DNA of 64,000 nt from Helicostylum pulchrum (taxonomy: Eukaryota > Mucoromycota > Mucoromycetes > Mucorales > Mucoraceae). Both the position numbers and the translations under genes were made by a program. Each line of letters opens with the position of its first letter. Position 1 is the first letter of the stretch. The notes under the pieces are model-generated. The model had not been told where the DNA came from. It saw only the letters and a program-made list of their open reading frames with translations, and searched no databases. The DNA lies in NCBI GenBank assembly GCA_025677825.1, contig JAIXMO010000026.1:248001-312000 (forward strand), written 5' to 3'. Positions 56,842 through 64,000 of the stretch are shown piece by piece.

Positions 56842-59800
56842 TTATTTATCTGTAAGTAATTTCGATTTTCCTCCTGCCATCATATGCGCAGATTGAGGTG
56901 CGAACTTTTTGATAGCTGCAATCAACTCGGGGAATCGCAAAGGTTTTGTGACATATTCATCCTAAAAAAAAAAGTAAATATATTGATCAAATAATGTAAA
57001 ACTCTCCACTCTCCACTTACCATGCCAGCTTGTAAACATTTTTCTCTATCACCGATCATTGCATGCGCAGTCAAAGCAATAATTGGAATATGAGTCTTAG
57101 AATTTGAACTATGCTCAATTTCGCGAATTTTCTGAGTCGCTTCAAAACCACCCATTACAGGCATCTGTACATCCATCAAGATCAAATCAAAGGTTTGCGA
57201 TTCGTAAGCCTCAACTGCTAATTTACCGTTGGCAACAACTGTCACATGATGTCCAAACTTTTCTAAAATACGAACTGCTAGTTTCTGATTAACATCATTA
57301 TCTTCAGCAAGTAAAACTTCTAAAGGAACAGTCTTGGAAGCATCACTAGGAAGCGCAGCATGACTTTCCAAAGCAGGCAATAATACATCAGCCATACCAG
57401 CAAGGTTAGTAGGTGAGTTGATATATCCAGTGATACCTAAATCAATACAGAGTTTCATATTGAGAAGGTGTACCTCAGGAGCAATCAACACAATAGGTGT
57501 ATAACGGAGTGGCACAATTTCTCTAATCTTTTCGGCTAATCCCATTTTATCAACAATGACTGTATCAAAGAAGGGAATATGTTTGCTCTTGCTTGAGTTA
57601 GCGTTAGAGATGGCTGCCGCCTCTTCAATGCTATTAACACGATAAGGCTTAAGATTCAAAGTCTTGATCTTGTCAATCACACCTGTTTCATCATTCATAC
57701 TATCCAAAAACAAGATTCGTCTATTTCTGAAACGGCGTATCTTCTCAATGATTTCCTTTTGTTCAAGACTGAAACGGAAAAGATTGACTGTAAAGTAGAA
57801 CTCAGATCCACGACCATACTTGGACTCGACCCATAAGTCGCCACCCATCAATTGCACGAGGTGCCTTGAGATAGAAAGACCTAAACCGGTACCACCATAC
57901 TCACGACTATATTATGCGCACATATAAAAAATATTAGTAAAAAAAAAAAAAAGAAGAGACATATATCCGAAAAAAAAAAGACTTACGTAGTGCTACCATC
58001 AGCTTGACAGAAAGTATCGAAAATAACATGAAGCTTATCTTCTTGAATACCAATACCAGTATCGCTGACACATAACTCTAATCTGACAGTATTATCTTGC
58101 ATACGAACAGCTCTTGTACGAAGCACAACTTCACCTTGCGTAGTAAACTTGACAGCGTTTCCGATCAAGTTTGTAATAACTTGACTTAGACGGAGAGGGT
58201 CGCCGATTAACTGATCAGGAATAGATTGGTCAACATGATAAATGAGATCTAATTTCTTTTGATTGGCCTTAACAGCTAATGTCTTCAAGACCTTAAATAC
58301 AGCAGCACGAAGAGAGAAAGGAATAGATTCAATTGTCATACGACCAGCTTCGATCTTCGAAATATCCAAGATATCATCAATTATAGTTAACAAACTATTA
58401 GCCAAACTAGAGACGATCATCAAGTTTTCTCTTTGCTGACGATTTAATTCAGTTTCTAAAGTAAGTGAAGTCATACCGATAATACCATTCATGGGTGTAC
58501 GGATTTCATGACTCATGTTTGCTAAAAATTCACTCTTGGATCGGTTAGCTAATTCAGCTGCTTCTCTTGCTAATCGGTTCTTTTGAATGGCGTCACGAAG
58601 TGATCCAACCATTTGATTGATCTTGGTCTTGAGAGAATCCATTTCACCAGAAGCTTCAACGGTAATCAGTCGAGAGAAATCGTTTTCAGTAGCCGCAGCC
58701 GAGATTTGAGCGAAAGCACGAACCTGCGTAGTCAAATTGGAGGCCATAGTATTTACATTGCTAGTAATTTCGCGCCATACACCTTCGACATCCATCACTT
58801 GTGCTTGAACACCGAGTTTACCTTCTGTACCTACTTCTCGAGCAACTCTCGTCACTTCTGAAGCAAACGAACTAAGTTGATCCACCATGGTATTAATCGT
58901 GTTTTTCAGTTCAGCAATTTCACCATGTACCTCAACTTCAATCTTTTTCGATAAATCACCTTGCGCTACAGCTTTACAAACAGCTGCAATTGCCCGAAGT
59001 TGGTCCGTTAAATTACTCGCCATAAGATTGACATTATCCGTTAAATCTTTCCAAGTACCATCGACACCTACAATCGCTGCTTGACCACCTAGCATACCTT
59101 CCGTACCTACTTGTCTAGCCACTCTTGTAACTTCTGCTGCAAATACACGAAGTTGATCTACCATGTCATTGACAGTTTCTCTATTTTTTTTTGAAAAAAA
59201 AAAAGTTATTAGAAACATGTAAAACTACTACTACAAATAAAATCCGATCACTTACTTTAATTCTCGAATTTCACCACGAGTTTCAACTTCAATCTTTTTA
59301 GATAAATCACCTAGAGCAACTGCTTTGGTTACTTCAGCAATGGAACGTACTTGGGTCGTTAGATTAGCAGCCATGATGTTAACGTTATCAGTTAAATCTT
59401 TCCAAGTACCAGCTACACCTTGAACATTGGCCTGACCACCCAGTTTACCATCAGTTCCTACTTCTTTCGCGACACGAGTAACTTCGGATGAGAATTCACG
59501 TAACTGATCCACCATGGAATTAACCGTAATCTTCAAATCTAGAATTTCACCACGCGTTTCAACATGAATCTTCTTCGATAAATCACCGTTGGCAACAGCT
59601 TTGGTAACTTCAGCAATAGAACGCACTTGAGATGTTAGATTTGCAGCCATGATGTTAACGTTATCCGTAAGTTCATTCCAAGTACCAGCAACACCTTGCA
59701 CAACAGCTTGACCACCCAATTTACCTTCGGTACCTACTTCTTTTGACACACGCGTTACTTCCGAAGCAAAGATACGAAGTTGGTCTACCATGTTGTTAAC

Positions 59801-62800: not shown

Positions 62801-64000
62801 GGCAAAGATACGAAGCTGATCCACCATTGAATTAACAATATTCTTTAGATCCCGAATCTCACCACCGGACTCTACTTCGATTTTTTTGGATAGATCACCA
62901 AGTGCAACAGCTTTAGTAACTTCAGCAATGGATCTTACTTGGTTTGTAAGATTGGTTGCCATCGTGTTGACATTATCCGTTAGATCTTTCCAGGTACCGT
63001 CTACGTTTGGCACCCGCGCCTGGCCGCCTAGTTTTCCTTCAGTACCTACTTCGCGAGCAACACGCGTGACTTCTGACGCAAACACACGTAGCTGATCCAC
63101 CATGTCATTCACGGTGTTTTTTAGATCTAGAATCTCGCCTCGCGTTTCAACTTCAATCTTTTTCGATAGGTCACCACTTGCTACGGCTTTCGTGACTTCG
63201 GCAATGGACCGTACTTGTGTGGTTAGATTGGCTGCCATGATGTTGACATTATTGGTAAGTTCGTACCAAGTGCCGGCAACGCCCTGTACTACGGCTTGAC
63301 CACCCAGTTTACCGTCTGTGCCTACTTCTTTGGAGACACGCGTAACTTCGGACGCAAAGATACGCAGCTGATCAACCATACCATTGACGATATCTTTCAG
63401 CTCTAGAATCTCACCTCGCGTTTCGACTTCAATCTTCTTTGATAGATCACCTAGCGCTACGGCTTTCGTGACTTCGGCAATGGAACGTACTTGTGTGGTT
63501 AGATTGGCCGCCATAATGTTGACGTGTTCTGTTAGTTCGTACCAGGTACCGGCAACGTTAGGCACGGTCGCTTGCCCGCCGAGTTTTCCTTCAGTACCTA
63601 CTTCTTTGGAAACACGGGTTACTTCAGATGCAAAGATACGTAGCTGGTCCACCATATTATTCACAATGTTTTTTAGTTCTAGGATTTCGCCCCCGGATTC
63701 AACCTCGATTTTTTTCGATAGATCACCGTTAGCAACCGCTTTTGTTACTTCGGCAATGGACCGCACTTGGTTGGTTAGATTGGCCGCCATAATGTTGACG
63801 TTATCCGTGAGTTCGTTCCAAGTACCAGCAACACCTTGTACAACAGCTTGGCCGCCGAGTTTTCCTTCAGTACCTACTTCTTTGGAGACACGCGTGACTT
63901 CAGACGCAAACACACGAAGTTGATCGACCATGTTATTGACAATATTCTTTAGATCGAGTATTTCGCCACCGGATTCGACTTCAATCTTTTTCGATAGGTC
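56842..64000 (-). CDS. NIK1: Giant group III hybrid histidine kinase (Nik1/Os-1 type) with at least 19 HAMP repeats, 5' end off window
   Basis: Visible exons: beyond 64000-59256, 59180-57987, 57906-57021 and 56961-56842; introns of 75, 80 and 59 nt keep frame. At least 2314 residues are encoded here and the N-terminus is missing; typical Nik1/Os-1 proteins have about 1300. Group III kinases sense osmotic stress and are the target of fludioxonil-type fungicides, signalling through Ypd1 and Ssk1/Skn7 to the Hog1 pathway. The HAMP array is followed by the phospho-acceptor site NMSHEIRTPMNG, the ATPase boxes LIGNAVKFT, VSDTGIGI and GGTGLGLS, then a receiver domain with LAEDNDVNQK and the phospho-Asp in DLILMDVQMP. 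The C-terminus ends KLLTDK. All catalytic motifs are intact. The cytosolic soluble form is usual; no membrane segment is seen in this part. Confidence 0.93.
58613..64000 (-). repeat. Tandem HAMP repeat array, 276-bp (92-residue) units
   Basis: Repeat starts (MVDQLR) fall every 276 bp from 63931 down to 59515, then at 59164 and 58888 after an intron that interrupts repeat 17. Nineteen complete units plus a partial one at the right edge are present. Each unit runs MVDQLR - EVTRV - VGT(E/D)GKLGGQA - GTW - LTDNVN - MAANLT - QVRSIA - VTKAVA - GDLSKKIEVE - GEI - LK - VN. No indels occur among units 1-18. The last two units are the most diverged (GVQAQVMDVEGVW, FSRLITVEASGEM), as expected for units next to the kinase core. 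Confidence 0.95.

What the first reader, a model, noticed from the sequence alone, without database searches (positions are those of the whole stretch)
58613..64000. Group III histidine kinase with at least 19 HAMP repeats, far beyond the usual five or six
The sequence shows directly 19 complete 92-residue units before the DHp domain and a further partial unit at the window edge, with constant length and no indels through unit 18. Poly-HAMP arrays in Nik1/Os-1 kinases work as signal-processing linkers whose unit number affects osmosensing and fungicide response (family knowledge). A three-fold or greater array would make a very long coiled relay or a scaffold. I know of no described kinase of this group with such an array, but could not search.
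Basis: partly seen in the sequence, partly recalled or inferred. Interest (0 to 1): 0.88.

Follow-up and report, generated by a model that had tools for sequence, protein, structure and literature searches.

The report
Kinase with 26 tandem HAMP units
This mould gene encodes a stress-sensing histidine kinase whose sensor arm is a chain of 26 near-identical 92-residue units instead of the five or six of well-studied fungi, but many related moulds carry similar or longer chains, so it is a typical member of an under-described branch of a known family.

Summary
The window holds 19 complete 92-residue units (58619-63937, minus strand) plus part of another. With the contig beyond the edge, the gene has 26 units in a 3249-residue predicted protein (8 exons, H-box at residue 2740). 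The nine kinase and receiver motifs searched for are present. A second gene in the same genome has 21 units. The units are old: no two share more than 93.1% of their bases and changes are mostly silent (pN/pS about 0.12), so an assembly artefact or recent burst is unlikely. The claim of exceptionality fails. Among the 120 database relatives listed (ranking favours long arrays), 62 have 19 or more units; arrays reach 30 in Mortierella and 39 in Coemansia, and bacterial-type relatives carry 16-20. Five or six units were counted here in several basidiomycete yeasts, while other basidiomycetes (Calocera, Mycena) have 16-27. Interior units resemble their own array more than other clades', which suggests separate growth; the unit next to the kinase keeps its position. 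Best reading: an ordinary Nik1/Os-1-type hybrid kinase with an expanded di-HAMP rod. What the extra length does is unknown. No paper found describes fungal arrays of this size.

The parts
56842..64000 (-). Window part of the 8-exon group III hybrid histidine kinase gene (gene start lies beyond the edge, at window-equivalent 67080): exons 64000-59256 (continues to 65032), 59180-57987, 57906-57021, 56961-56842
   Evidence: Gene model with GT-AG introns; database protein P0007 is identical from residue 32 on
63938..64000 (-). Unit 7 of 26, cut by the window edge
58619..63937 (-). Units 8-26: 19 complete 92-residue units (read as di-HAMP units)
   Evidence: unit HMM count 26 for the gene; 25 PF00672 stretches in P0007
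59522..62833 (-). Three tandem 4-unit blocks (units 12-15, 16-19, 20-23; 1104 bases each)
   Evidence: Same-codon fraction at lag 4 is 0.670 against 0.503-0.592 at the other lags from 1 to 8; 0 of 10000 unit-order permutations reach it
59181..59255 (-). 75-base intron inside unit 24; absent from the C147 paralogue
58343..58540 (-). HisKA/DHp domain with H-box FLANMSHEIRTP
   Evidence: PF00512; motif
57780..58204 (-). HATPase_c domain (interrupted by intron 57907-57986); N, G1, F and G2 motifs present
   Evidence: PF02518 (positions converted by the exon map); motifs
56908..57317 (-). Receiver domain (interrupted by intron 56962-57020); LLAEDN, LILMDVQMP, ALTA and TKPL present
   Evidence: PF00072 (positions converted by the exon map); motifs

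Best explanation
An ordinary, probably active, cytoplasmic Nik1/Os-1-type (group III) hybrid histidine kinase of a Mucorales fungus, whose poly-HAMP sensor and relay arm has grown to 26 di-HAMP units. Shown: the motifs of a His-to-Asp phosphorelay kinase, one HPt match in the same genome, constant 92-residue units under strong protein-level constraint, a trace of growth by 4-unit blocks within one 5.8-kb exon, and similar or longer arrays in many early-diverging fungi. Inferred: two chains pair into a long parallel rod (roughly 4-5 nm per unit, so about 0.1 micrometre in all) that relays or integrates stress as helix rotation or packing changes to the DHp domain next to the conserved last unit, as proposed for shorter Nik1 kinases. 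Whether unit number tunes the response is not shown.
For: 26 units at constant spacing. Nine kinase and receiver motifs and the Pfam domains present. No clear transmembrane helix (best hydropathy window lies in the DHp region). pN/pS about 0.12. 4-unit blocks. A relative with 22 units differs by the equivalent of one block. Kinase tree places it among fungal poly-HAMP kinases, beside Rhizopus and Mucor proteins. Its last unit is most like the last unit of Basidiobolus (0.87). Solved chains 9trk and 9trj contain the same type of unit. HPt locus on C86. Deleting all HAMP domains of CaNik1 activates Hog1 in S. cerevisiae transformants (PMC3848655, passages).
Against: No expression, protein or reads data. 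The AlphaFold model of four units is unusable as a fold (pLDDT 39.4); only its helix pattern fits. The two halves of a unit are only weakly alike by profile comparison (probability 5-8%, E 0.003-0.005). The rod length rests on geometry, not measurement. The kinase tree holds no fungal kinase of another group and several of its deep nodes have low support.
Confidence: 0.82

Rival explanations
1. The long array has a task of its own beyond relay, such as a scaffold, molecular ruler or crowding/mechanical sensor, and its length is kept by selection.
For: Long arrays occur in Mucorales, Mortierella, Basidiobolus, Coemansia, Calocera, Mycena and bacterial-type records, with nearly all interior units closer to their own array in each; strong protein-level constraint; the C147 paralogue and its Thamnidium counterpart both have 21 units.
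Against: Unit number varies between close relatives (26, 24, 22, 17), as expected if length is loosely constrained. Umbelopsis has a kinase with 17 units and another, apparently complete, with 7. No functional data.
Confidence: 0.25
2. Unit number is nearly neutral: tandem in-frame repeats gain and lose blocks by unequal crossing-over, and selection acts only on each unit's fold.
For: 4-unit block copies; variable numbers among relatives; unit 4 to most of unit 24 lies in one intronless exon; records with an intact-looking N-terminus but few units exist (Rhizopus microsporus P0142, called a fragment, 6 units; Benniella P0202, 2 units; Umbelopsis P0194, 7 units).
Against: The named Mucorales proteins of the list all have 13 or more units, though that ranking favours long arrays. 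Eight of ten short records of Rhizopus, Choanephora and Mortierellaceae that I examined for truncation begin inside a unit at an internal methionine, and the other two begin inside a unit without one, so they are probably truncated gene models, not short genes.
Confidence: 0.45
3. Assembly or gene-model artefact (expanded or collapsed array).
For: No reads available here; P0007 may come from the same assembly.
Against: Any two units of the gene differ by at least 6.9% of bases; records of other species have comparable arrays, and Thamnidium P0034 has 21 units as C147 does.
Confidence: 0.03

Closest known systems
Fungal group III hybrid histidine kinases (Nik1, Os-1, Bos1, TcsC, DhNik1)
   Same: 92-residue repeat, HisKA, HATPase_c and one receiver, no clear transmembrane helix
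   Different: 26 units against the five to seven reported (PMC3418262, PMC5159414, passages)
Mucorales orthologue records (e.g. Thamnidium elegans P0034 21 units, Mucor lusitanicus P0028 22 and P0059 17, Phycomyces P0023 23)
   Same: Same architecture and similar unit number
   Different: Unit number; 26 is the highest among the named Mucorales of the list (others up to 23)
Coemansia and relatives (Coemansia P0233 39 units, P0001 37)
   Same: Same unit and architecture
   Different: Longer arrays and longer proteins; H-box SHEVRTP in the seven records looked at
Myxobacterial AskA, AskB, Amb07 (PMC7643160, passages) and the bacterial-type proteins
   Same: Extended poly-HAMP arrays on hybrid kinases; 16-20 units of 92 residues in the 23 bacterial-type records
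   Different: Bacterial; the records carry GAF domains by precomputed Pfam (accession meaning recalled). The myxobacterial proteins were not fetched or counted here
Aer2 poly-HAMP (PDB 3vol; 3LNR as named in PMC3418262) and PDB 9trk/9trj
   Same: Concatenated HAMP domains; 9trk carries the same unit type
   Different: A few HAMPs or units only; Aer2 is a bacterial receptor

Membership tests
Fungal group III hybrid histidine kinase | N-terminal tandem repeats of about 90-92 residues with HAMP domains | tested here: met
   26 units at 92 residues; PF00672 25 stretches in P0007
Fungal group III hybrid histidine kinase | HisKA, HATPase_c and C-terminal receiver with catalytic motifs | tested here: met
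Fungal group III hybrid histidine kinase | Kinase sequence (H-box region) groups with known group III kinases | tested here: inconclusive
   Groups with Kwoniella, Rhodotorula and other poly-HAMP fungal kinases, apart from two bacterial ones, but no fungal kinase of another group was in the tree
Fungal group III hybrid histidine kinase | No transmembrane segment | tested here: met
   Only one 19-residue window above 1.6, at 1.65 in the DHp region; crude hydropathy test
Fungal group III hybrid histidine kinase | Five to seven units (reported range, not a defining limit) | tested here: not met
   26 units; basidiomycete yeasts 5-6, e.g. P0216 5 and P0219 6
Fungal group III hybrid histidine kinase | Acts upstream of the HOG pathway | not testable with these tools
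   Only an HPt locus was found in the genome
Poly-HAMP (each unit a pair of HAMPs) | Second half of each unit is also a HAMP | tested here: inconclusive
   hhalign between halves weak (E 0.0027, probability 4.6%); two helices per unit in a low-confidence model; pairs reported for CaNik1 (PMC3848655, passages)

The most novel reading that the evidence does not exclude
Long di-HAMP rods (about 20-39 units, perhaps 0.1-0.17 micrometre) arose several times in fungi and in bacteria and do something that short Nik1 arrays cannot, such as spanning a fixed distance or integrating force or crowding along the rod; the five-to-seven-unit textbook form would then be a reduced special case of the ascomycetes and basidiomycete yeasts on which the work was done.
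Probability: 0.2. Interest if true: 0.7.

Novelty: new member of a known kind. Interest (0 to 1): 0.4.

Why it matters
Models of group III kinases assign jobs to individual HAMP units (for example HAMP4 and HAMP5 of DhNik1, as summarised in PMC5159414) on kinases with about five units. Kinases with 20-39 units need a model that works for many nearly identical units. The natural series of unit numbers seen here (5, 6, 7, 9, 17, 21, 26, 30, 39) makes the open question of what unit number does directly testable.

Tried and rejected
Assembly artefact: rejected on unit divergence. Recent burst or gene conversion: rejected as the main cause in this gene, since units 18 and 22, identical as proteins, differ at 34% of their synonymous codons and mean pS is 0.63. 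Exon duplication: the introns near the starts of units 2, 3 and 4 are at three slightly different positions, and unit 4 to most of unit 24 share one exon, so not supported. Structure prediction of four units with a 13-row alignment of the window's own units failed (pLDDT 39.4), so no fold search was run. Pfam names such as HTH_6, CoV_NSP13_stalk and Spectrin_Dys-1 on P0007 have no stretch passing on its own and were dismissed as repeat artefacts. PF18947 (HAMP_2) also has 25 stretches, but its best one covers residues overlapping the same half as PF00672 does elsewhere, so 25 + 25 was not read as 50 HAMPs.

One search, made to check this, shows otherwise: Umbelopsis kinases with 7 units look complete, and P0142 and P0202 have an N-terminal stretch but 6 and 2 units. 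The draft also gave five to seven units as general for Dikarya; Calocera, Dacryopinax, Mycena and Punctularia (12 records, 16-27 units) contradict that, and both statements were changed.

Limits of counts: ranks by summed repeat score and favours long arrays; only 120 of 7995 scored hits were listed. admits only short proteins, and many of its rows are partial gene models. Unit counts for Linderina P0003 (38) and Kickxella P0234 (32) include irregular spacings and may be too high. The clade comparison used 11 proteins chosen by me, and the two Mucorales proteins were not compared with each other. The kinase tree used 61 of the 234 sequences then held. The label 'bacterial-type' for 23 proteins is mine: five carry a bacterial name, the rest were assigned by domain content.

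Full report
What is there. The window is bases 248001-312000 of contig C88 of a 32.2-Mb, 168-contig genome. On the minus strand an open frame runs from the window edge to 59252 and continues after an intron into a DHp domain. With the neighbouring bases I built an 8-exon model, C88 315080-304842, encoding 3249 residues. Database protein P0007 (3218 residues) is identical from residue 32 on, although it may derive from the same assembly. The protein holds 26 units spaced 92 residues apart (one spacing of 93 between units 1 and 2), then H-box, HATPase and receiver. In the window itself units 8-26 are complete and unit 7 is cut.

It is more than chance, and unlikely to be an artefact. TRF reports one array with 0% indels. 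Inner units (7-24) have mean pS 0.63 and pN 0.078 over 153 pairs, and no pair of the 26 units reaches 97% base identity (maximum 93.1%). The same-codon fraction over all pairs is 0.505 against 0.436 expected for random codon choice. The units are thus old, and similar because the protein is constrained. A 4-unit period remains visible: in units 12-23 the lag-4 same-codon fraction is 0.670, and 0 of 10000 permutations of unit order reach it. A close unnamed relative, P0020, has 22 units, which fits one 4-unit block fewer. Most of the array (unit 4 to most of unit 24) lies in one 5777-base exon.

A second gene. C147 683508-691985 encodes 2679 residues with 21 units. Its kinase is nearly identical to that of Thamnidium elegans P0034, which also has 21 units. 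The window gene lies elsewhere in the kinase tree, beside an unnamed protein and Mucor lusitanicus P0059 (several deep nodes have low support). Units 1-5 and the last two of the two paralogues are best matches by position; unit 4 only narrowly, and the inner units are not. The two genes are the only HAMP loci reported in the genome. Eight HisKA matches, one of them below the family's cut-off and one with stops inside, and one HPt match were found (exon-wise searches, so lower bounds).

It is not exceptional for its clade. A unit HMM built from this gene was run on the 120 proteins listed: 62 of 120 have 19 or more units, 12 have 26 or more including P0007, and 9 have more than 26; range 13-38. 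The list was ranked by a score that sums over repeats, so this is not a frequency. Examples in that list: Mortierella alpina 30 and 23, Calocera 24-27, Mucor 17-22, Phycomyces 23, Rhizopus 13-21, Mycena 16-20. A third search added Coemansia sp. RSA 986 with 39.

Shorter relatives. A search limited to shorter lengths and scored on the kinase added 112 proteins: none has 19 or more units, as the length limit dictates; 29 have 5-7, 40 have 8-13 and 43 have 0-4. Rhodotorula P0216 has 5, Kwoniella P0219 6, Saitoella P0185 4, Diversispora P0162 7, Funneliformis P0156 9. I examined 21 of these 112 for completeness. Ten short records of Rhizopus, Choanephora and Mortierellaceae begin inside a unit and are probably truncated models. 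Against a uniform picture, the Umbelopsis kinases P0194, P0195 and P0210 (7 units) look complete, and P0142 (Rhizopus microsporus, named a fragment, 6 units) and P0202 (Benniella, 2 units) have a stretch before the first unit. 23 bacterial-type proteins in the list have 16-20 units.

Separate growth. In 11 proteins I chose, interior units are closer to their own array than to any other clade's in 19 of 19 (window), 15 of 15 (Mucor lusitanicus P0028), 23 of 23 (Mortierella), 12 of 13 (Basidiobolus), 31 of 32 (Coemansia), 18 of 20 (Calocera), 13 of 13 (Mycena), 11 of 11 (Acidobacteria) and 1 of 2 (Funneliformis); Kwoniella and Rhodotorula have no interior units by this definition. Homogenisation within arrays could also give this pattern, but the deep synonymous divergence here argues against recent homogenisation in this gene. 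The unit next to the DHp domain is most like the last unit of another clade in the window gene (Basidiobolus unit 20 of 20, 0.87), Mucor lusitanicus, Mortierella, Basidiobolus, Coemansia, Calocera, Mycena, Funneliformis, Kwoniella and Rhodotorula; the Acidobacteria protein is the exception.

How it likely works. Published work, seen as passages only, reports class III kinases with five to six or five to seven units (PMC3418262; PMC5159414), six in TcsC (PMC6652806), and pairs of HAMPs per 92-residue unit in CaNik1, whose HAMP-less form activates Hog1 in S. cerevisiae (PMC3848655). Solved chains 9trk and 9trj match units of this gene; I saw only sequence alignments. A low-confidence model gives two helices of about 29 residues per unit with two connectors. 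If each HAMP adds about half of its helical residues as axial rise, one unit spans 4-5 nm and 26 units about 0.1 micrometre; this is inference. The simplest reading is a dimeric rod relaying to the DHp domain. Whether the extra units tune, scaffold or do nothing is open.

Known or new. PMC7643160 (passages) says that myxobacterial AskA, AskB and Amb07 have an extended poly-HAMP region compared with NIK1. PMC5285503 (passages) reports group III kinases in early-diverging fungi, but its main text does not hold the word HAMP; supplements and figures were not seen. Searches in an open-licence library gave, by listing and the passages read, no paper on fungal arrays of this size; most subscription papers are not covered. 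I file it as a new member of a known kind, with a widespread trait that seems not to be described in that library.

Noticed in passing
contig C147 683508-691985 (loci L011, L012): Second group III hybrid kinase of the same genome with 21 units and without introns 4 and 5 of the window gene; kinase nearly identical to Thamnidium elegans P0034.
   Followed up: yes
P0085, P0086, P0089, P0091 and other bacterial-type proteins: Hybrid kinases of Acidobacteria and similar bacteria with GAF domains (precomputed Pfam, meaning recalled) and 16-20 units of 92 residues, 51-69% identical over 48-65% of the query stretch; origin relative to the fungal arrays unresolved.
   Followed up: partly
P0001-P0003, P0005, P0006, P0008, P0111: Seven Coemansia, Linderina and Martensiomyces kinases carry H-box SHEVRTP instead of SHEIRTP.
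   Followed up: no
P0121, P0123, P0124, P0141, P0143, P0173, P0176, P0177: Database models of Rhizopus and Mortierellaceae kinases that start at a methionine inside a unit; long arrays seem to be truncated often in automatic annotation.
   Followed up: partly
224-3499: 1092-residue frame on the minus strand with DUF3712; the first 4 kb has GC 0.41 and AT skew 0.218.
   Followed up: no
10745-13342: NAT10/TcmA-type RNA cytidine acetyltransferase on the minus strand.
   Followed up: no
53797-55755 and 15773-17767: Two F-box-like proteins on the minus strand (the second below Pfam's cut-off), the first just downstream of the kinase.
   Followed up: no
C82:51406-51660 of the same genome: HisKA match with two stop codons inside, perhaps an intron or a decayed kinase copy.
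   Followed up: no
PDB 9trk and 9trj: Solved histidine kinase-Gcn4p fusions contain the same 92-residue unit, so a structure of this unit type seems to exist; one literature search gave no paper on it.
   Followed up: partly
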